Below are positions 52,111 to 59,652 of a stretch of DNA of 64,000 nucleotides, piece by piece. Origin of the DNA: Oscillatoria sp. FACHB-1407 (GTDB lineage: Bacteria; Cyanobacteriota; Cyanobacteriia; Elainellales; Elainellaceae); NCBI RefSeq assembly GCF_014697545.1, contig NZ_JACJSA010000003.1:434001-498000 (forward strand). The letters are read 5' to 3'. The stretch's first letter is position 1, and every line of letters starts with the position of its first letter. A program made the position numbers and the translations under genes. Below the pieces are notes generated by a model that saw only the letters and a program-made list of their open reading frames with translations, did not search any database and was not told the DNA's origin.

Positions 52111-52731
52111 TCAGGCATTCCCTTCCACTAAAACGCCATTGAGAAAAATATCGGCAATCCCTTCTGCCATCTCTTGCATTTCTTGCGGTGAGGAATGTTC
52201 AGCCATCACGGTATCGCGGCTAAACCCGGCCACTGTAAACATCCCTAAAAATACTTGAGCCACAATGCGCGGGTTCATGCGGCGGTAGATGCCCTGATCC
52301 ATCGCCGTTTGAAAGAAAGCTTCTGCGACATCGGTCATTTTGGCGATCACCTCTGCCTGAATGCGATCGCGCAGATCTGGGTGAAACTGAGCTTCCATAA
52401 AGCACACCCGTAGCATATCGGCATTGCGGTGTAGATTTAGCATCCGCTTTCGCATAACCTGAGCGATCGCCTTATAGCTACCCATCTCGCTCAATTCCGT
52501 AAGCAGATCCGTTAAAATTTCAATCCACCCCTGAGTTGCCACTTCCACGAGAATTGCTTTTTTGTTTTCAAAGTGGCGAAACAAAGTGCCCTCAGCGACT
52601 CCAGCTGCTTCGGCAAGATCGCGAGTTGTCGTGCCGTCGTAGCCTCGACGCGCAAATAACCGCTGTGCTGCCTGAAGGATTCGAGTGCGAGTCTCTACTT
52701 CAGGTTGGGATGGACGTTGAAAAATCTGCAT
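52111..52731 (-). CDS. TetR-family transcriptional regulator
   Basis: 206 residues. TetR_N HTH at ~15-62: RILQAAQRLFARRGYDGTTT, DLAEAAGVAEGTLFRHFENK. The C-terminal ligand domain (~80-200) is all-helical and not specific. Usually a repressor of its own or neighbouring genes. The nearest genes are the small protein at 51853 and the TIR island; no clear operator palindrome was found upstream. Confidence 0.9.
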   Translation of the reverse strand: MQIFQRPSQPEVETRTRILQAAQRLFARRGYDGTTTRDLAEAAGVAEGTLFRHFENKKAILVEVATQGWIEILTDLLTELSEMGSYKAIAQVMRKRMLNLHRNADMLRVCFMEAQFHPDLRDRIQAEVIAKMTDVAEAFFQTAMDQGIYRRMNPRIVAQVFLGMFTVAGFSRDTVMAEHSSPQEMQEMAEGIADIFLNGVLVEGNA

Positions 52732-52952: not shown

Positions 52953-54320
52953 TTACTCCTCCTCATTGAGCGGACGAGTGACTCGCAAGATTAGCGCACT
53001 CAATCCCAGGAACCACAGCAACGTAATTAGATAAGCGAATGACATCAACTCGCGGATTGATCGCTTGAGGTTAACCACATAATCTGCGTGAACATCCAAC
53101 CCCATTGCTCCGACAATTTGTCCGGTAGAGTTGCGAATAGGGGCAAACGCAGCAAACTGAGCACCTCGCTGATCACGAGTGACAAAGGTGGTGAGACTGA
53201 GTTGAAACAACCCCTGGTAGACCGCTGTGTCAGGTTGGTCAACGATAAATGATTGTCGAAACACGGTTGCTTTTTCAGGTTCGAGCGTCCGCAATACGTC
53301 TCCCACAATCAAGATCTCACCGGGGCGAGTCCCAGCGGTGTAGCTGTAGGGGTTGGCATAGGGAACTAGCGTATGCACGCGATAGAGCCAATCCTGATGT
53401 TTTTGATAAAGGGGATTACTGACAGGCTCGGTTTGTCCAGGAGGGAGAGGAGTACGGGCGAGGGTGGCAAAGTCGTTTCCATTTACGCCGGCAACCGTTG
53501 CATTTAATGCCTGCACCATCTCAGCTTTGATGCGAGTGACGGTCGTTTCCCAGAGGTAGTAGTAGAACCAGTAAAATCCCAGAGTAACGATCGCCATATT
53601 GACGACAACCGTTGTCACCATCACAATCCACTTGGCACGCTGTCGGGCTCGATAAAAAGCAGCTTTGGCAGCTTGACTGGCGTGAATATAGCGAGTTTGA
53701 ATTTCGGTTGGTTTAGGGTCTTGGTTGATGCTGGCGACTAACCACTGTTCCGCATCTTTGAGGTCGCTGCCTCGGAGCAAATAACTGTTGTTTTCAGTTT
53801 TGAGTTGCCACTCGATCGCTCGCACGAGTAGGCGGGTATGCATGTGAATGTAGTCAACATCTGTGTCGATCGCCCGTACCAGTTCGTCAAAGGCGTGATC
53901 AAAATCATCTGTTTCGCGAAAAAACAGCCAATTGTGTTTACTAATTTGTGGATGAACCTGTTGAGGGTCAAAACCTTCACGTCGCACAATCGGCAAAAAA
54001 CGTTTGTGGCAATGAGCCGCATAGTCAATTTCATCGCGACAGACCGCCGAGGCAACCGAGTCAGGGCTAATCACAAAAATAAATGTATTGGCAGACTCAA
54101 TGCCCCGTTGAATGGCTTGCCACCATTCTTCCCCTTTGTAAATGTCAGTCCAATCAACCCACGGATCTCGCCCAATCCGCTTAAATGCCTCACTTAACAC
54201 TTCGACAAAAGCTTTGTCTTTGCGTGAATAGGAAATGAACACATCATTTCCGGGTGTATGAGTCTCATTGGGTTGCAAACGAGTATTCACAGCAACAATA
54301 GACGGCTTCTTCTCAAGCAT
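52953..54320 (-). CDS. TIR-domain membrane protein with extracytoplasmic sensor-like domain
   Basis: 455 residues. TIR domain (~25-155): DVFISYSRKDKAFVEVLSEAF, DWTDIYKGEEWWQAI, FIFVISPDSVASAVCRDEIDYA; the Glu in VCRDEIDYA is at the catalytic position of NAD-cleaving TIRs. Residues ~160-215 form a module also present in the neighbouring TIR-WD40 protein (HTRLLVRAIEW.., SYLLRGSDLKDAEQWL). TM1 at ~230-255, an outside domain of ~150 residues resembling a Cache/PAS sensor (FAAFAPIRNSTGQIVGAMGLDVHADYV), TM2 (~425-447), and a short RVTRPLNEEE tail. Likely a receptor whose TIR output faces the cytoplasm (inference). Confidence 0.82.
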   Translation of the reverse strand: MLEKKPSIVAVNTRLQPNETHTPGNDVFISYSRKDKAFVEVLSEAFKRIGRDPWVDWTDIYKGEEWWQAIQRGIESANTFIFVISPDSVASAVCRDEIDYAAHCHKRFLPIVRREGFDPQQVHPQISKHNWLFFRETDDFDHAFDELVRAIDTDVDYIHMHTRLLVRAIEWQLKTENNSYLLRGSDLKDAEQWLVASINQDPKPTEIQTRYIHASQAAKAAFYRARQRAKWIVMVTTVVVNMAIVTLGFYWFYYYLWETTVTRIKAEMVQALNATVAGVNGNDFATLARTPLPPGQTEPVSNPLYQKHQDWLYRVHTLVPYANPYSYTAGTRPGEILIVGDVLRTLEPEKATVFRQSFIVDQPDTAVYQGLFQLSLTTFVTRDQRGAQFAAFAPIRNSTGQIVGAMGLDVHADYVVNLKRSIRELMSFAYLITLLWFLGLSALILRVTRPLNEEE

Positions 54321-54438
54321 GATCGATGCCCCCGATAGCAGTGATTATTTGCTTGTAATTACTCTAAACGACATGTCTTGAAACGATGAAGGATAAAGGA
54401 TGAAGGATAAACATCAAACTGTTTCCAGCCTTTAGCCT

Positions 54439-57210
54439 TTAGCTTTCAGCCTGCAAAAATTTACAGGTGTTTTGAGCACCTGCGATCGCCTCCAACTCTA
54501 ACGCGCTCAATGTAGTCAGGCTGGACAAAAATTGATAGCCCTGAAATTGTTCACAGGCGATCGCCAACCATCGTTCCACTATCATGTCGTGCCACAGGTG
54601 AAGGGTACCATCCTCTGTTCCGGTGACAATTAGGTGCCCATTTGGATGAAAAGCGACAGCAGAGACAACCCCATTGTTCTGCCGGAAGGGTTCACCCAGG
54701 GGATTGCCGTTATTATCCCAAAGTCGCAAGGTACCATCCTCGCTCGTGCTGGCGATCGTCCTGCCATCGGGGCTGTAGGTGACAGCCGCGACGAAGCCCT
54801 CATGTCCCTGAAACGGGCTGCCCAGCGGTCTTGCTGTCTCAACATCCCACTGGCGCAAAATGCCTTCTCCTCCAGCACTGATGAGCACGTTTTTCAACGG
54901 ATTGAAGGCAACCGCTGCAACCCCAAACTCGTGTCCTTGAAGCGTGGTCAGATGACGTCCTTGCAAATCCCAAAAGCGAACGGTTGAGTCCTTGCTGGCA
55001 CTGGCAATGCGATCGCCATTAGAACTAAAGGTGACCGATTGGACGCTACTGCTATGCCCTTCAAACGGTTGCCCAATGGGTTGCCGATCTGCTACGTTCC
55101 ACAGTCGAATGGTGCGATCGTCCTCTCCTCCACCGCTGACGATCGTCTCACCATCGGGGCTAAAAGCAACCGATTGAATCGCGTCATTGTGACCCTTCAA
55201 AGGTTGACCAATCTGTCGGCGTTGTTGGACATCCCACAGTCGCAGCAATTTGTCATTACCACCGCTAACCAGCATTGTCCCTGTTGAATTGAAGGCGATC
55301 GCGTTCACTCCATCTGCATGGGCTTGCAAGGGTGAACTGATGGGCTTTCCTTGCGTATCCCAAAAGCGAATCGTGCCATCGGCACTAGCACTGGCGAAGG
55401 TTTGATCATGGGAGTTAAAGGCGATGGACTGAATGACGTTATTGTGGGCTGAGATGACTTCACTCGCTAGATGATTTTCCACATTCCACAGTCGTATGGT
55501 GCGATCGGTACTGCTGCTGATCAGCGTGTCACCCTCTGGGGTAAACACAGCCCGCAAGACAAATCCCTCATGTCCACGAATGGGTTCACGAATTAAATTT
55601 CCCTGCAAATCCCACAGGCGAATGGTGCGATCGGGGCTAGCACTGGCAATTGTCTGTCCAGATGGGCTGAAGGTAACGGATCGAACGACATTTTCGTGCC
55701 CGACAAAGGGGAGGTCGATCGGGTTGCCCTGCAAATCCCAGAGTCGCACTGTATAATCTAAACCTCCACTCACAACGTGTTGCCCATCGGGGCTAAAAGC
55801 AACGGATAACACCCCTCCATCATGACCCTGCAAAGGGTTTGCCAGGAGTTGACCCTCCAAGCTCCAGAGACGAATCGTACCATCAGTACTGGCACTGGCG
55901 ATCGCCTGACCATCGGGGCTACTGGCAACGTCATACACGGCATCAGTATGTCCTTCAAAAGGTTGACCAATTGCCTGTCCTGATGCGTCCCACAGTCGCA
56001 CCTTGCCATCATCACCACCGCTGACAATACGATCGCCACTAAATGCTAGTGCATTAACCGCGCCCTGATGCGCTTGAATCGATTCACCAATGCGATTGCC
56101 CATTGTCGTCCACCGAGTGATCGCACCATTGGCATCACCCGTTACTATCATCCTTCCATCAGCACTCCAGACGATCGCGTAGATTGGCACATCAAGGGCT
56201 GAGACAGGGTTGCCAAGAGGTTGACCCGTTTGCAAATCCCAAAATCGCAGAACGCCTTTTTCGTCAGCACTAACGAGTTTTCTACCGTCAGGGCTGTAGG
56301 CGATCGCATACACTTCTCCCTCATGCCCCAACAATCGGTTCTTTTCGTGGTTACCCTGAATGGCACTGAGTAAACTCGATCGCACTTCGTTCAATCCCTC
56401 CTGAGAATCATCGCTCAGGCTGATGCCGATGGTGTGGAGTGCCAGCACCAATCCATTGACCGGCTTGACCTCCATCAATGTGTTCACACGAGCTACTTTT
56501 TCTCGTAGCTCTGCCTCTGCTCGGTGTCCCTCAGCCCGATGATATTGCCAGAGTGCAACCAGGGTTGACGTGGCGGTAATAGCTAACCCCAAAGAGATGC
56601 CACCCACCGTTAGCCGTTCTCGACGCAACACTTTGTGACTCGTGCGGACAAATTCGATCTGCAATGGAGCGGGTTGTGGGTCTTTAGCCTCCGACGCAGC
56701 CAACCACTGCTCTGCCTTCCGCAGGTCGCTGCCCCGTAGCAAATAGCTGGAGTCTTGCCCATGTTCTTTCCAGTCCTTCGCCCGCACCAGCAATCGCGTG
56801 TGAAAGATAACGTGTTCTAAGTCAGTATTAAGGGCTGCGATCAACTTAGCCAGCGATTCATCAAAAGACTCTGCCTCTTTGAAAAAGATCCAATTGATGG
56901 ATGCTAAGGCTGGATGTACCTGTTCGTACTGCACATCCCGGTAGACGATTGGCAGCAATCGCTTGCTACTGGCGATCGCCAGCTCTAACTCAATATTGCA
57001 CTCGCGAGAGGCAATCCAGTCAGGGCTGAGCACAAAGACCACAGCATTGGCTTCTTCAATTCCAGTCGAAATTTCAGCTCGCCAATCAACACTCGGAGGA
57101 ATGTCTTCCCAATCAATCCACACATCTTTGCCCTGTCCCACCAGGACGCTGTGAAGCTTGTTGGCAAATTCCTTATCTCGACGACAGTAGGAGATAAATA
57201 CGTCTGTCAT
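54439..57210 (-). CDS. TIR - TM - 14x WD40 protein
   Basis: 923 residues from ATG 57210 (MTDVFISYCRRDKEF); a GTG at 57255 would add 15 residues. TIR domain (~1-135) with WIDWEDIPPSVDWRAEI and SPDWIASRECNIELELAIASS, where Glu is at the NADase position. The shared module HTRLLVRAKDW.., SYLLRGSDLRKAEQWL follows (~140-200), then a TM (~220-240) and a helical stretch. From ~305 there are 14 WD40 repeats (GHxxxV...SPDGxxIASxSxDGTIRLWD), enough for two seven-blade propellers. A C-terminal ~45-residue tail (RWLAIACEQF.. CKFLQ) is typical of cyanobacterial WD40 proteins. Last gene of a minus-strand group starting at 58193. Confidence 0.88.
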   Translation of the reverse strand: MTDVFISYCRRDKEFANKLHSVLVGQGKDVWIDWEDIPPSVDWRAEISTGIEEANAVVFVLSPDWIASRECNIELELAIASSKRLLPIVYRDVQYEQVHPALASINWIFFKEAESFDESLAKLIAALNTDLEHVIFHTRLLVRAKDWKEHGQDSSYLLRGSDLRKAEQWLAASEAKDPQPAPLQIEFVRTSHKVLRRERLTVGGISLGLAITATSTLVALWQYHRAEGHRAEAELREKVARVNTLMEVKPVNGLVLALHTIGISLSDDSQEGLNEVRSSLLSAIQGNHEKNRLLGHEGEVYAIAYSPDGRKLVSADEKGVLRFWDLQTGQPLGNPVSALDVPIYAIVWSADGRMIVTGDANGAITRWTTMGNRIGESIQAHQGAVNALAFSGDRIVSGGDDGKVRLWDASGQAIGQPFEGHTDAVYDVASSPDGQAIASASTDGTIRLWSLEGQLLANPLQGHDGGVLSVAFSPDGQHVVSGGLDYTVRLWDLQGNPIDLPFVGHENVVRSVTFSPSGQTIASASPDRTIRLWDLQGNLIREPIRGHEGFVLRAVFTPEGDTLISSSTDRTIRLWNVENHLASEVISAHNNVIQSIAFNSHDQTFASASADGTIRFWDTQGKPISSPLQAHADGVNAIAFNSTGTMLVSGGNDKLLRLWDVQQRRQIGQPLKGHNDAIQSVAFSPDGETIVSGGGEDDRTIRLWNVADRQPIGQPFEGHSSSVQSVTFSSNGDRIASASKDSTVRFWDLQGRHLTTLQGHEFGVAAVAFNPLKNVLISAGGEGILRQWDVETARPLGSPFQGHEGFVAAVTYSPDGRTIASTSEDGTLRLWDNNGNPLGEPFRQNNGVVSAVAFHPNGHLIVTGTEDGTLHLWHDMIVERWLAIACEQFQGYQFLSSLTTLSALELEAIAGAQNTCKFLQAES

Positions 57211-57276
57211 GCTTACCCCAACTGGTAGTAGTTGAATGGCAACGAAAACTGGCACCTATTGACTGAGTGTACAGAG

Positions 57277-57543
57277 TTAACTCTGGCGATCGCCCTGAGG
57301 TGAACGGCGTGGTAACGGAGGTAACGGAGAACCAGACGGAGTCGGAGAAGGTGAGTTGCATGGACCACGAGTGCCATCTGGGCGACGACAGGGAGGTGTC
57401 TGAATCCCTTTCGGTTCACTAGATGTCACGAAAGCCATTGCCATCGCTTTGGCTGTGGTGTGAATTAATGGAAATATTGCGCTGACAATCAGCACTAGCC
57501 CCAGAGACAGACCCGCAATTTTATGTGTTTTTGTCTGCATCAC
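57277..57543 (-). CDS. Small Pro-rich exported protein
   Basis: 88 residues. N-terminal basic segment and hydrophobic helix (~8-30, GLSLGLVLIVSAIFPLIH) followed by a Pro/Arg/Ser-rich tail with PCRRPDGTRGPC (Cys pair) and PSPTPSGSPLPPLPRR. Overlaps the stop of the upstream gene by 4 bp (ATGA), and the TIR-WD40 ATG is 66 bp downstream. Probably secreted or membrane-anchored. No family recognised. The coupling to both neighbours supports it as real. Confidence 0.6.
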   Translation of the reverse strand: MMQTKTHKIAGLSLGLVLIVSAIFPLIHTTAKAMAMAFVTSSEPKGIQTPPCRRPDGTRGPCNSPSPTPSGSPLPPLPRRSPQGDRQS

Positions 57544-58193
57544 TGACCACCCTCACTAAAAACAATGCCGTCACCCTCGCAGACATTAACATTAAACTGC
57601 TCTATGACATCTTCGTCATCAAACACGGCTTTAAAGTCATATTCACACTCCTCAGAATTAATAGGAATGTCAGCCGAGCTTCCAGGCAGAATGACCTGCT
57701 CTCCCAATAAATCTTCACGCCAGCGGTCATCACTGGCAGGTGTGAAATAAAACTCTACAAGTTCAACGCTGGTTTGATTGATGACATTCAAGGTCCTATC
57801 ATTGTCGCCGTAATAGCTGTAAGTCCCCCCATTAATACAAAGGTCAACGTAGGGGTCTACAATCTCTTGTCCATTATCAAACACGCCCAGCACATCATAG
57901 AAACAGCTGTCGCTGCTATCAATGACAATCTCTAATTTTTGCTCTCGCTCCAGCACACGCTCACCTAATCGATCCTCGCCCCAATAGTCATCAGTTGAGG
58001 GAGAAATATAAAACTCTTGTAGCGTGTGCTCCGTAAAGTTTTCTACTTCAAAGCGTATGGTATCGGTCGAAGATGTATCTTGAGCCAGAGCAGGTCTCCC
58101 TCCAAGAGAGAAGAACGTTGCATCGCCCCAACTGAAAATCGGTAACGTCACGGCAGCCATAATGAAGACTGAGTGACTCAGGTTTTTGAGCAT
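57540..58193 (-). CDS. Secreted protein with two copies of a ~75-residue domain
   Basis: 217 residues. Signal peptide (1-~36, ending PALA-Q). Two tandem domains: residues ~42-120 (VENFTEHTLQEFYISPSTDD, YWGEDRLGERVL, CFYDVLGVFDNG) and ~127-215 (NQTSVELVEFYFTPASDDRW, LLGEQVILPGSS, CEYDFKAVFDDE). Each has two Cys, likely a disulphide. A good ribosome binding site (AGGAGAA) precedes the ATG. The same domain type appears singly in secreted proteins of other bacteria with no defined role. First gene of the TIR operon. Confidence 0.75.
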   Translation of the reverse strand: MLKNLSHSVFIMAAVTLPIFSWGDATFFSLGGRPALAQDTSSTDTIRFEVENFTEHTLQEFYISPSTDDYWGEDRLGERVLEREQKLEIVIDSSDSCFYDVLGVFDNGQEIVDPYVDLCINGGTYSYYGDNDRTLNVINQTSVELVEFYFTPASDDRWREDLLGEQVILPGSSADIPINSEECEYDFKAVFDDEDVIEQFNVNVCEGDGIVFSEGGQ

Positions 58194-58425: not shown

Positions 58426-59652
58426 CTACTGCGGTGAACCCAGGTTTAACAACTGCCCACACAAGCCCAATACACCCCCCGCAATGACTAACCAGGCAGA
58501 GTTGACCTTGTAATAAAACAGTGCGATCGCCCCTATCACTACAATTCCAATCGTCCACCAATCGATGATTGCTGCTTGACCGAGTTGCCAGGTGACAACC
58601 GCCATCAACCCCAACGAGGCCGCATTCACTCCATCTAAAAAGCCGCTTGCCCAAGGAGATTGGCGCAATTTAGGCACCCAGGGGTTGATGATCGCCACCA
58701 GCACAAATGCTGGGAGAAAAATACCGATCGTGCCTGCGATCGCCCCGACATTGCCCGCCAATAGATAGCCCACAAACGTAGCGGTCGTGAATACGGGACC
58801 AGGGGTCAACTGTCCCACCGCGATCGCGTCCAGGAGTTGTTGGGAGGTGAGCCATTGCGTCCGCTCCACCAGTTCTCGTTGCAAAAACGCCAGCAACACG
58901 TAGCCACTACCGTAGAGCACCGACCCAATTTTGAGGAAAAACAGAAATACCTGAATCCAGTTAGGCGATGGCGACGTGCCAGCCCCACCCCCTACCTGAG
59001 CCAGCAGACTGGGAATGGGCAACATCAGGGCAGAGGTGGTCGTGCTGCCAGCACGCCCCCAGGTTCTAATCAGCATGACAGCGACTCCAGCCAACACCAG
59101 CAGCAAGATTTCGTCTACTCCCAGGAAAAAGGCAACAATAACCGCCAGACCTGCCAGGATAGTTGGGAGATCCTTCGCAGCGGATTTACCTAATTTCCAG
59201 AGAGCCTGGAGCACAACCGCAATAATGATGGGCTTGATGCCATAGAGGAGCCATCCCAGCTCTGGCAACGCTTGATAACGGGCATAGAGGGCAGCGATGA
59301 TCCACACAATCACCATGGCGGGCAGGATAAAGCAGGAACCTGCGATCGCCAATCCCCATAGCCCTGCCCGCTCATAACCGATGTGAATCGCTAACTCGGT
59401 CGAGTTTGGACCTGGAATTAAGTTTGTCACCCCCAGCAGATCCAGCAATTTTTCCTCGGTGAACCACTTGCGCCGTTTGACAAACTCATCGTTCATCATG
59501 GCGATATGGGCAGCCGGACCACCAAACGCGATCGCCCCTAGCCGAAAAAAGCCAATTGCCAGTTCTCGGAGTCGTTGTTGTTTCTGATGAGGTTCCAACG
59601 TCTCATAGCGAGGAGACTCTTGCACTTCGGTATTGTCAATTTCGTGGGACAT
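58426..59652 (-). CDS. chrA: Chromate efflux transporter ChrA
   Basis: 408 residues, bidomain CHR transporter with about 10-12 TM helices. First half: AIGFFRLGAIAFGGPAAHIAMM and NLIPGPNSTELAIHIGYERAG. Second half: FLKIGSVLYGSGYVLLAFLQ and AVGQLTPGPVFTTATFVGYL, an internal repeat of the first. This matches the ChrA/CHR family, which exports chromate. Chromate is the known substrate of the family; another anion cannot be excluded. Confidence 0.92.
   Translation of the reverse strand: MSHEIDNTEVQESPRYETLEPHQKQQRLRELAIGFFRLGAIAFGGPAAHIAMMNDEFVKRRKWFTEEKLLDLLGVTNLIPGPNSTELAIHIGYERAGLWGLAIAGSCFILPAMVIVWIIAALYARYQALPELGWLLYGIKPIIIAVVLQALWKLGKSAAKDLPTILAGLAVIVAFFLGVDEILLLVLAGVAVMLIRTWGRAGSTTTSALMLPIPSLLAQVGGGAGTSPSPNWIQVFLFFLKIGSVLYGSGYVLLAFLQRELVERTQWLTSQQLLDAIAVGQLTPGPVFTTATFVGYLLAGNVGAIAGTIGIFLPAFVLVAIINPWVPKLRQSPWASGFLDGVNAASLGLMAVVTWQLGQAAIIDWWTIGIVVIGAIALFYYKVNSAWLVIAGGVLGLCGQLLNLGSPQ

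What the first reader, a model, noticed from the sequence alone, without database searches (positions are those of the whole stretch)
52953..58193. Operon-like island of two membrane TIR proteins plus two exported proteins
Two TIR proteins in a row on the minus strand, one with 14 WD40 repeats, one with an extracytoplasmic Cache-like domain and a second TM. Both keep the Glu at the NADase position (VCRDEIDYA, ECNIELELA) and both share a ~55-residue juxtamembrane module (HTRLLVRA..W.., SYLLRGSDL..AEQWL, DPxP). Upstream and translationally coupled by a 4-bp overlap are a secreted two-domain protein and a small Pro-rich exported protein. This looks like a signalling or defence module with an outside sensor part. 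Inference: the exported proteins or the outside domain sense a signal and the TIR domains respond by NAD cleavage.
Basis: partly seen in the sequence, partly recalled or inferred. Interest (0 to 1): 0.7.

Follow-up and report, generated by a model that had tools for sequence, protein, structure and literature searches.

The report
Bacterial membrane TIR receptors, swappable sensors
Two neighbouring cyanobacterial genes make membrane proteins that appear to carry a sensor outside the cell and a TIR enzyme, the kind that destroys the cofactor NAD, inside it, and they belong to a larger bacterial family in which the same inner part is joined to different outer sensors, rather like Toll-like receptors built back to front.

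Summary
In detail: two minus-strand TIR genes (A, 52953-54320; B, 54439-57210), each TIR / ~70-residue module / membrane helix / outer domain, preceded by two exported-looking proteins (D, C). The operon reading does not hold as a unit: D's relatives show no TIR gene nearby (0 of 29 loci, ~1.5 kb flanks) and C has no clear relative. What is conserved is the receptor. A has near-full-length relatives in 11 of 387 other genomes of its class, ending 9-28 residues after the second membrane helix, without HAMP or kinase. Its outer domain models as a single Cache domain (Z 13.5 to DcuS). The module occurs 23 times in this genome, each behind a TIR. In 101 TIR+module proteins, mostly from Cyanobacteria and Chloroflexi, a membrane helix follows the module in 94, charges put TIR inside, and the catalytic-site Glu is kept in 108 of 108 TIR domains covering it. 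Outer parts include WD40 propellers, Cache, dCache, CHASE2 and IMS; the tree needs two separate Cache origins. Best reading: one-protein transmembrane receptors whose outer sensor gates a cytoplasmic TIR NADase through the first membrane helix. NAD cleavage, ligands and role (defence or stress) are inferred.

The parts
52953..54320 (-). Gene A: TIR - module - TM1 - single Cache - TM2, 455 aa; ends 10 residues after TM2
53859..54251 (-). TIR domain of A (residues 24-154)
   Evidence: Pfam TIR_2 2.3e-26; VIA Z 19.1 to SPARTA TIR-APAZ, 18.6 SARM1, 16.5 AbTir
54030..54032 (-). Glu97 of A, at the position of the catalytic TIR glutamate
   Evidence: invariant in the 12 rows of A1; Glu in 108 of 108 TIR domains covering the column
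53655..53870 (-). TIR-linked juxtamembrane module of A (residues 151-222), helical in the model
   Evidence: no NCBIfam match, Pfam matches weak and inconsistent (best E 0.0011)
53574..53630 (-). TM1 of A (about residues 231-249), inside one long predicted helix 206-277
53049..53567 (-). Predicted extracytoplasmic single Cache domain of A (residues 252-424)
   Evidence: AF2 pLDDT 89.3, pTM 0.85; VIA Z 13.5 DcuS, 13.4 WalK, 13.1 CitA; 29% identity to the sensor of own histidine kinase L021
52986..53048 (-). TM2 of A (about residues 425-445); no HAMP follows
54439..57210 (-). Gene B: TIR - module - TM - WD40 repeats, 923 aa (GTG at 57255 is an alternative start)
56989..56991 (-). Glu of ECNIELELA in B, equivalent of Glu97 of A
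56617..56832 (-). Module of B
56551..56607 (-). Single TM helix of B (hydropathy 1.74)
54592..56358 (-). About 14 WD40 repeats of B, predicted as two seven-bladed propellers outside the membrane (inference); two tail Cys follow
57277..57543 (-). ORF C: small Pro-rich protein with a signal-peptide-like N-terminus; probably incidental
57540..58193 (-). ORF D: exported-looking protein with two copies of an unnamed ~90-residue domain; probably incidental
58426..59652 (-). Chromate transporter gene upstream; a relative lies directly before the TIR-Cache gene in another family (L212, L216, same genus g101)

Best explanation
A and B are members of a family of one-protein transmembrane receptors. The cytoplasmic N-terminal part (TIR enzyme plus a TIR-specific helical module) is constant, a membrane helix follows at once, and the C-terminal part is a swappable extracytoplasmic sensor: a Cache domain in A, about 14 WD40 repeats in B, and CHASE2, dCache or IMS in relatives. 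In A a small molecule would bind the Cache domain; the change would pass back through TM1, which is one continuous helix with the end of the module in the model, and reorganise the TIR domains of a dimer or cluster so that they cleave NAD+. This inverts the usual receptor, whose output sits behind the last membrane helix. Shown computationally: architecture, conservation, topology signals, Cache fold, repeated sensor exchange. Inferred: ligand, oligomerisation, NAD cleavage and the biological role (NAD depletion or an ADP-ribose signal under stress or attack). The exported-looking proteins C and D are probably bystanders.
For: TIR and Glu: Pfam, VIA Z 19.1 SPARTA, 18.6 SARM1, 16.5 AbTir, Glu in 108 of 108 domains covering the column (5 of 113 aligned pieces do not reach it). 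Module: 23 matches at E below 1e-15 in this genome, equal to 11 single plus 4x3 tandem TIR copies. Membrane helix within 40 residues after the module in 94 of 101 proteins; net charge higher before it than after in 85 of 94, equal in 9, lower in 0. Outer domain types: CHASE2 E 6e-54 to 6e-63 in five proteins; in L016 dCache_1 E 1.3e-9 (38.4 bits, below its 45-bit cut-off) and MCP-like_PDC_1 E 4e-6 (just above its cut-off); ARC6-like IMS E 1e-18 in L144; single Cache in A by fold. WD40 side: Cys number even in 58 of 68, exactly two in 34, none in 8. Stand-alone conservation: near-full-length relatives in 11 of 387 other genomes, ending 9-28 residues after TM2, and no neighbour gene common to all loci. 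Sensor exchange: the Cache label needs two changes, forced by strongly supported branches.
Against: No ligand, no NADase assay, no localisation. The TM helix is a hydropathy call and WD40 propellers outside the membrane are unusual; B could be a membrane-anchored or cytoplasmic protein, and L014 is a TIR-module-WD40 protein without the helix. NACHT-type fusions (L010 by Pfam; L152 and L174 by likeness) lack the helix directly after the module. Pfam's Cache models stay below threshold on A (dCache_1 E 0.041), and only single members of the 12 touch any Cache model. Non-enzymatic TIRs such as MyD88 also give Z about 17. Charge and Cys counts come from related sequences and are not independent trials; 10 of 68 have odd Cys numbers and 8 of the 58 even ones have none. 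The 79 loci were found with a TIR-Cache profile and capped at the best 80, so class proportions are biased. Classes rest on home-made profiles and partly on my eye.
Confidence: 0.68

Rival explanations
1. The four genes are one defence or signalling operon: D and C sense something outside and activate A and B.
For: Same strand, overlapping D/C, short gaps; D and C look exported (by eye); a TIR-propeller then TIR-Cache order recurs in L194.
Against: No A or B match at 29 loci with D relatives; C has no clear relative; TIR-Cache genes of other cyanobacterial genera were found without TIR-WD40 or D nearby; in g101 chrA lies directly before the TIR-Cache gene, which suggests that D-C-B was inserted here (inference).
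Confidence: 0.12
2. A and B are non-enzymatic scaffolds: the TIR domains serve only for homotypic contacts, as in MyD88, and pass a signal to other TIR proteins.
For: TIR domains often act by assembly; the genome has at least 15 TIR-module proteins, four with three TIRs in tandem, and MyD88 and IL-1RAcP TIR structures also match A at Z about 17.
Against: Glu at the catalytic position in 108 of 108 domains covering it, tandem copies included; the best structural matches are enzymatic SPARTA and SARM1 TIRs, though Z differences of 1-2 are small.
Confidence: 0.15
3. Thoeris-like signalling: the TIR part makes a diffusible NAD-derived messenger for a separate effector coded elsewhere.
For: PADLOC matches to ThsB profiles on the TIR part (best E 4.7e-8 on A, 9.1e-8 on B); NCBIfam ThcB4 E 1.5e-9 on B's TIR, far below its cut-off (37 of 220 bits).
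Against: No neighbour common to the TIR-Cache loci; only the TIR part matches. A distant effector gene was not searched for.
Confidence: 0.25

Closest known systems
Metacaspase-TM-CHASE2 and EACC2-caspase proteins (PMC3501461, PMC8195603; passages seen)
   Same: Death-type enzyme at the cytoplasmic N-terminus, then one TM, an extracellular CHASE2 sensor and three TMs (one Trichodesmium protein in PMC3501461); variable C-terminal sensors with EACC2-caspase (PMC8195603)
   Different: The enzyme is a caspase, not TIR; no TIR-specific module; the passages seen do not mention TIR with Cache or CHASE2
Toll-like and IL-1 receptors (TIR survey PMC7075850, passages seen)
   Same: Outer sensor, a membrane helix, cytoplasmic TIR
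   Different: There TIR is C-terminal with LRR or Ig ectodomains; here TIR is N-terminal, the outer parts are Cache, CHASE2, WD40 and others, and the catalytic-site Glu was present in every domain examined that covers it
Cache histidine kinases (own L021; DcuS, CitA, WalK folds)
   Same: TM-Cache-TM sensor unit, 29% identity to L021 over 260 positions
   Different: In the kinase the output follows TM2 and HAMP; A stops after TM2 and has its output before TM1
SPARTA, SARM1, AbTir TIR NADases
   Same: TIR fold, VIA Z 16.5-19.1, and the Glu position
   Different: No APAZ/Argonaute, ARM or SAM partner in the protein; membrane-bound with its own sensor
Bacterial TIR proteins with transmembrane regions, and TIR-NBD-WD40 proteins (review PMC9153377, passages seen)
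   Same: The review mentions TIR proteins with short extra parts such as transmembrane regions, in a group that includes prokaryotes, and N-terminal TIR with C-terminal WD40
   Different: Those WD40 proteins have a central nucleotide-binding domain; a sensor-bearing transmembrane TIR family is not described in the passages seen

Membership tests
Catalytic TIR domain (NADase) | TIR fold | tested here: met
   Pfam TIR_2 E 2.3e-26; VIA Z 19.1
Catalytic TIR domain (NADase) | Glu at the catalytic C-x-x-E position | tested here: met
   108 of 108 domains covering it; A's Glu97 pairs with a Glu of chain 7uwg (that this Glu is catalytic in AbTir is recalled)
Catalytic TIR domain (NADase) | NAD+ cleavage | not testable with these tools
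   needs an assay
Single Cache sensor | PAS-like fold with a long N-terminal helix between two TMs | tested here: met
Single Cache sensor | Curated Cache HMM above threshold | tested here: not met
   dCache_1 13.8 of 45 bits, E 0.041 on A; other Cache models touch one member each of 12 (best E 0.0078)
Toll-like receptor | Ectodomain N-terminal (LRR), TIR C-terminal | tested here: not met
   order is reversed; no LRR match on A (B's list was cut at 25 of 68 families)
Thoeris | TIR gene beside a ThsA-type effector | tested here: inconclusive
   none among the neighbours scanned in the window and no gene common to 11 loci, but ThsA was not searched for by name, nor at a distance
Membrane receptor family proposed here | TIR + module + TM directly after | tested here: met
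   94 of 101 family proteins, A and B included
Membrane receptor family proposed here | TIR inside, sensor outside | tested here: inconclusive
   charge bias 85 of 94, Cys parity 58 of 68, domain types; no experiment

The most novel reading that the evidence does not exclude
Cyanobacteria, Chloroflexi and Verrucomicrobia carry a modular class of transmembrane TIR NADase receptors, wired backwards (output before the first membrane helix), whose outer sensors (Cache, dCache, CHASE2, IMS, WD40 propellers) are exchanged in evolution; they would be a bacterial counterpart of Toll-like receptors that ties chosen outside signals directly to NAD+ cleavage.
Probability: 0.6. Interest if true: 0.8.

Novelty: new variant of a known kind. 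Interest (0 to 1): 0.62.

Why it matters
Bacterial TIR enzymes are mostly studied as answers to phage inside the cell. A receptor that couples an ordinary small-molecule sensor outside the cell to a TIR NADase would link environmental sensing to NAD-based arrest or death, give a bacterial parallel to Toll-like receptors, and offer a simple comparison (TIR-Cache versus a Cache histidine kinase with a related sensor) for testing how a TIR is switched on through a membrane.

Tried and rejected
The operon with exported sensors was tested by neighbourhood and is unsupported. In one search my script translated C in a wrong frame, so C was not tested there; C was tested. Truncation of A (a lost HAMP-kinase part) was rejected because 11 near-full-length relatives end at about the same place. 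A defence-island setting: ten neighbour proteins that I chose from eight TIR-Cache loci gave SecA, UvrC, FBPase-glpX, QueG, an amidotransferase, a D-isomer dehydrogenase, a methyltransferase, UPF0182 and DUF2887, and one no hit at E 1e-10; no formal enrichment test was made. Phage carriage: 3 related loci in viral contigs, matching mainly the TIR part. Module outside TIR proteins: two weak partial matches in this genome (E 0.006 and 0.008, 24-32 positions) were not followed up; the module was found in 28 of 60 genomes including this one, but I did not check each copy for a TIR. A recalled likeness of the module to a region of nSTAND-WD40 proteins was not tested. In 199 genomes of L194's class the Cache profile hit 14, and of the 18 places only L194's own was on a TIR protein. 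Structure search with the whole A model listed only TIR chains in the rows shown, so the Cache was modelled alone. A first WD40 profile failed for want of input and was redone. One search scored at most four candidates per genome, so its counts are lower bounds.

Literature: TIR with Cache domain, CHASE2 or dCache gave 0 papers in the held open-access library for three term sets and 2 for TIR+CHASE2+bacterial, whose passages describe caspases with CHASE2. A 2026 preprint on TIR-like NADases (PMC13174449) was seen as a listing only. Most subscription papers are not held.

Full report
What is there. Four minus-strand ORFs lie at 52953-58193 in an 8.13-Mb genome that I take to be cyanobacterial, because genomes of its family match cyanobacterial records (for example, the G016 contig of 421,817 bases and the FACHB-471 contig of the same length). 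In transcription order they are D (57540-58193), C (57277-57543), B (54439-57210) and A (52953-54320). Upstream lies a chromate transporter gene (58426-59652), downstream a TetR-type gene (52111-52731). D and C overlap by 4 nt (GTG start) or 1 nt (ATG start); the C-B gap is 66 nt and the B-A gap 118 nt (and ORF coordinates). Promoter- and terminator-like matches are no more frequent than in shuffled sequence, so co-transcription is untested.

Protein A. TIR_2 matches residues 27-148, E 2.3e-26. The full model (24 rows, mean pLDDT 89.0, pTM 0.55) has helices 155-173 and 184-199 after the TIR domain, then one helix from 206 to 277 that contains TM1, a mixed domain, and a helix 412-448 that contains TM2. 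Its TIR part resembles SPARTA TIR (8i87, Z 19.1, rmsd 1.8, 129 aligned), SARM1 (6o0u, Z 18.6, rmsd 1.8, 127 aligned) and AbTir (7uxu, Z 16.5, rmsd 2.1, 127 aligned); non-enzymatic TIRs such as MyD88 (7beq) also reach 17.3. The outer domain modelled alone (14 rows, pLDDT 89.3, pTM 0.85) resembles the DcuS (3by8, Z 13.5, rmsd 2.5, 131 aligned), WalK (13.4) and CitA (13.1) sensor domains. Curated Cache profiles do not reach threshold. The same sensor unit sits in a histidine kinase of this genome (L021), where HAMP, HisKA and HATPase follow TM2. In A the chain stops about 10 residues after TM2.

Conservation of A. Of 388 genomes of the class (own included) 14 had a match at E 1e-85 or better, with at most four candidates scored per genome. 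Eleven of the 13 others have near-full-length alignments; G284 and G206 align only over the TIR part. G288, one of the 11, has a second copy that aligns to residue 346. The 11 are 45-51% identical to A and end 9-28 residues after the hydropathy-defined TM2. Among 11 loci (window and L194 included) no neighbour gene is common to all. Shared by some are a CHASE2 cyclase or kinase gene (L133, L214, L215), FecR (L214, L215), chrA (window and L212) and an unnamed large protein (L078, L081). In g101 (L212, L216) chrA lies directly before the TIR-Cache gene, which suggests that D-C-B was inserted between them in the window (inference).

The family. A profile of 17 modules finds 23 copies at E below 1e-15 in this genome, equal to 11 single plus four triple-TIR proteins. 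A search of genome contigs (84,980 species) with A1 found 276 related stretches and kept the best 80, giving 79 loci; by record titles 63 are cyanobacterial, 13 Chloroflexi, 2 Verrucomicrobia and 1 a Bacteroidetes MAG, which may be misbinned. These loci give 86 proteins with TIR and module; with the 15 own ones that is 101. Five further ORFs have a TIR without the module, and none has the module without a TIR; the loci were found through the TIR part, so this is not a free test. Within 40 residues after the module 94 of 101 have a hydrophobic helix. The 7 exceptions are two short contig-cut ORFs, L202, L014 and three NACHT-type fusions (L010 by Pfam, L152 and L174 by likeness). Net charge is higher before the helix in 85 of 94, equal in 9, lower in 0. 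Classes: WD40 65, Cache 11, CHASE2 8, other 15, cut 2. Of the 15 'other', I counted by eye four as WD40, three as NACHT, one as IMS and one as dCache for the tree. L194 was in the alignment behind the Cache profile, so its label was also checked by direct comparison (21% identity, E 3e-10).

Topology of the WD40 members. Of 68 WD40 proteins with a helix, the outer part has an even number of Cys in 58 (none in 8 of these), exactly two in 34, often about 21 residues apart near the C-terminus; 10 have odd numbers; B has two, 38 and 8 residues from its end. This fits a disulfide outside the cytoplasm, but the sequences are related and some are cut by contig ends, so it is a hint and not a test. 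Several Chloroflexi members end in what looks by eye like an SH3-type wall-binding domain (not confirmed by a profile, and the Pfam list for L188 was cut at 25 of 50 rows).

Sensor exchange. In a tree of 100 TIR-module sequences (quick method; 27 of 97 inner branches strongly supported, 39 weak) the Cache label needs two changes, both forced by supported branches. Ten cyanobacterial TIR-Cache proteins form one group (99), and the Anaerolineales protein L194 pairs with its own neighbour, a TIR-propeller protein, at 70% identity (100). CHASE2 needs four changes, at least two forced. So the inner part stays and the outer part is exchanged.

Mechanism. Shown: constant inner part, helix, exchangeable outer part, conserved Glu. 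Inferred: that the outer ligand acts through TM1 on TIR assembly, that the product is NAD+ cleavage, and that the outcome is arrest, death or an ADP-ribose signal. The absence of a shared neighbour favours a protein that works alone or through an unlinked partner.

Known context. Passages of PMC3501461 describe a metacaspase-TM-CHASE2 protein with the same topology, and of PMC8195603 caspase-EACC2 proteins with variable C-terminal sensors including CHASE2. Passages of PMC9153377 mention TIR proteins with transmembrane regions, in a group that includes prokaryotes, and TIR-NBD-WD40 proteins. PMC7159879, PMC7075850, PMC7517822 and PMC10907252 were also seen as passages only. None of these passages describes TIR with Cache or CHASE2, and term searches for that combination found no such paper in the held library. 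The principle of a receptor-gated death enzyme is therefore known; the TIR version with its own module and sensor exchange appears to be a new variant.

Noticed in passing
L016:8503-11589(-), L017:4190-8338(-), L018:563-5020(-), L019:8617-11793(+): Four own-genome proteins carry three TIR-module units in tandem before the membrane helix, with dCache, WD40, WD40 and CHASE2 outside; all their TIR copies that cover the site keep the Glu.
   Followed up: partly
window 57540-58193; L049-L077: D belongs to an exported-looking family found in 22 of 98 genomes (own included), mostly single-domain proteins of about 115-150 aa; D has no Pfam or NCBIfam match.
   Followed up: partly
window 58426-59652; L212, L216: A chromate transporter gene lies beside or near the TIR-Cache gene in two families.
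   Followed up: partly
L231-L238, L240, L241, L244, L247: Genomes of L194's class have short TM-Cache-TM proteins with a HAMP-like helical tail and no evident output domain (by eye).
   Followed up: no
L012:8068-18640(+): Three TIR-WD40 genes in direct tandem in the own genome.
   Followed up: no
L010:7036-9888(+), L152, L174: TIR-module fused to NACHT (Pfam for L010 only), without a membrane helix directly after the module.
   Followed up: no
L181:6040-7530(+): TIR-module protein whose C-terminal part looks by eye like several membrane stretches and has no Pfam match outside TIR.
   Followed up: no
L133:2274-4190(-), L214:1851-3761(-), L215:4110-6410(+): CHASE2 cyclase or histidine kinase genes next to or near TIR-Cache genes, with FecR genes in two loci.
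   Followed up: partly
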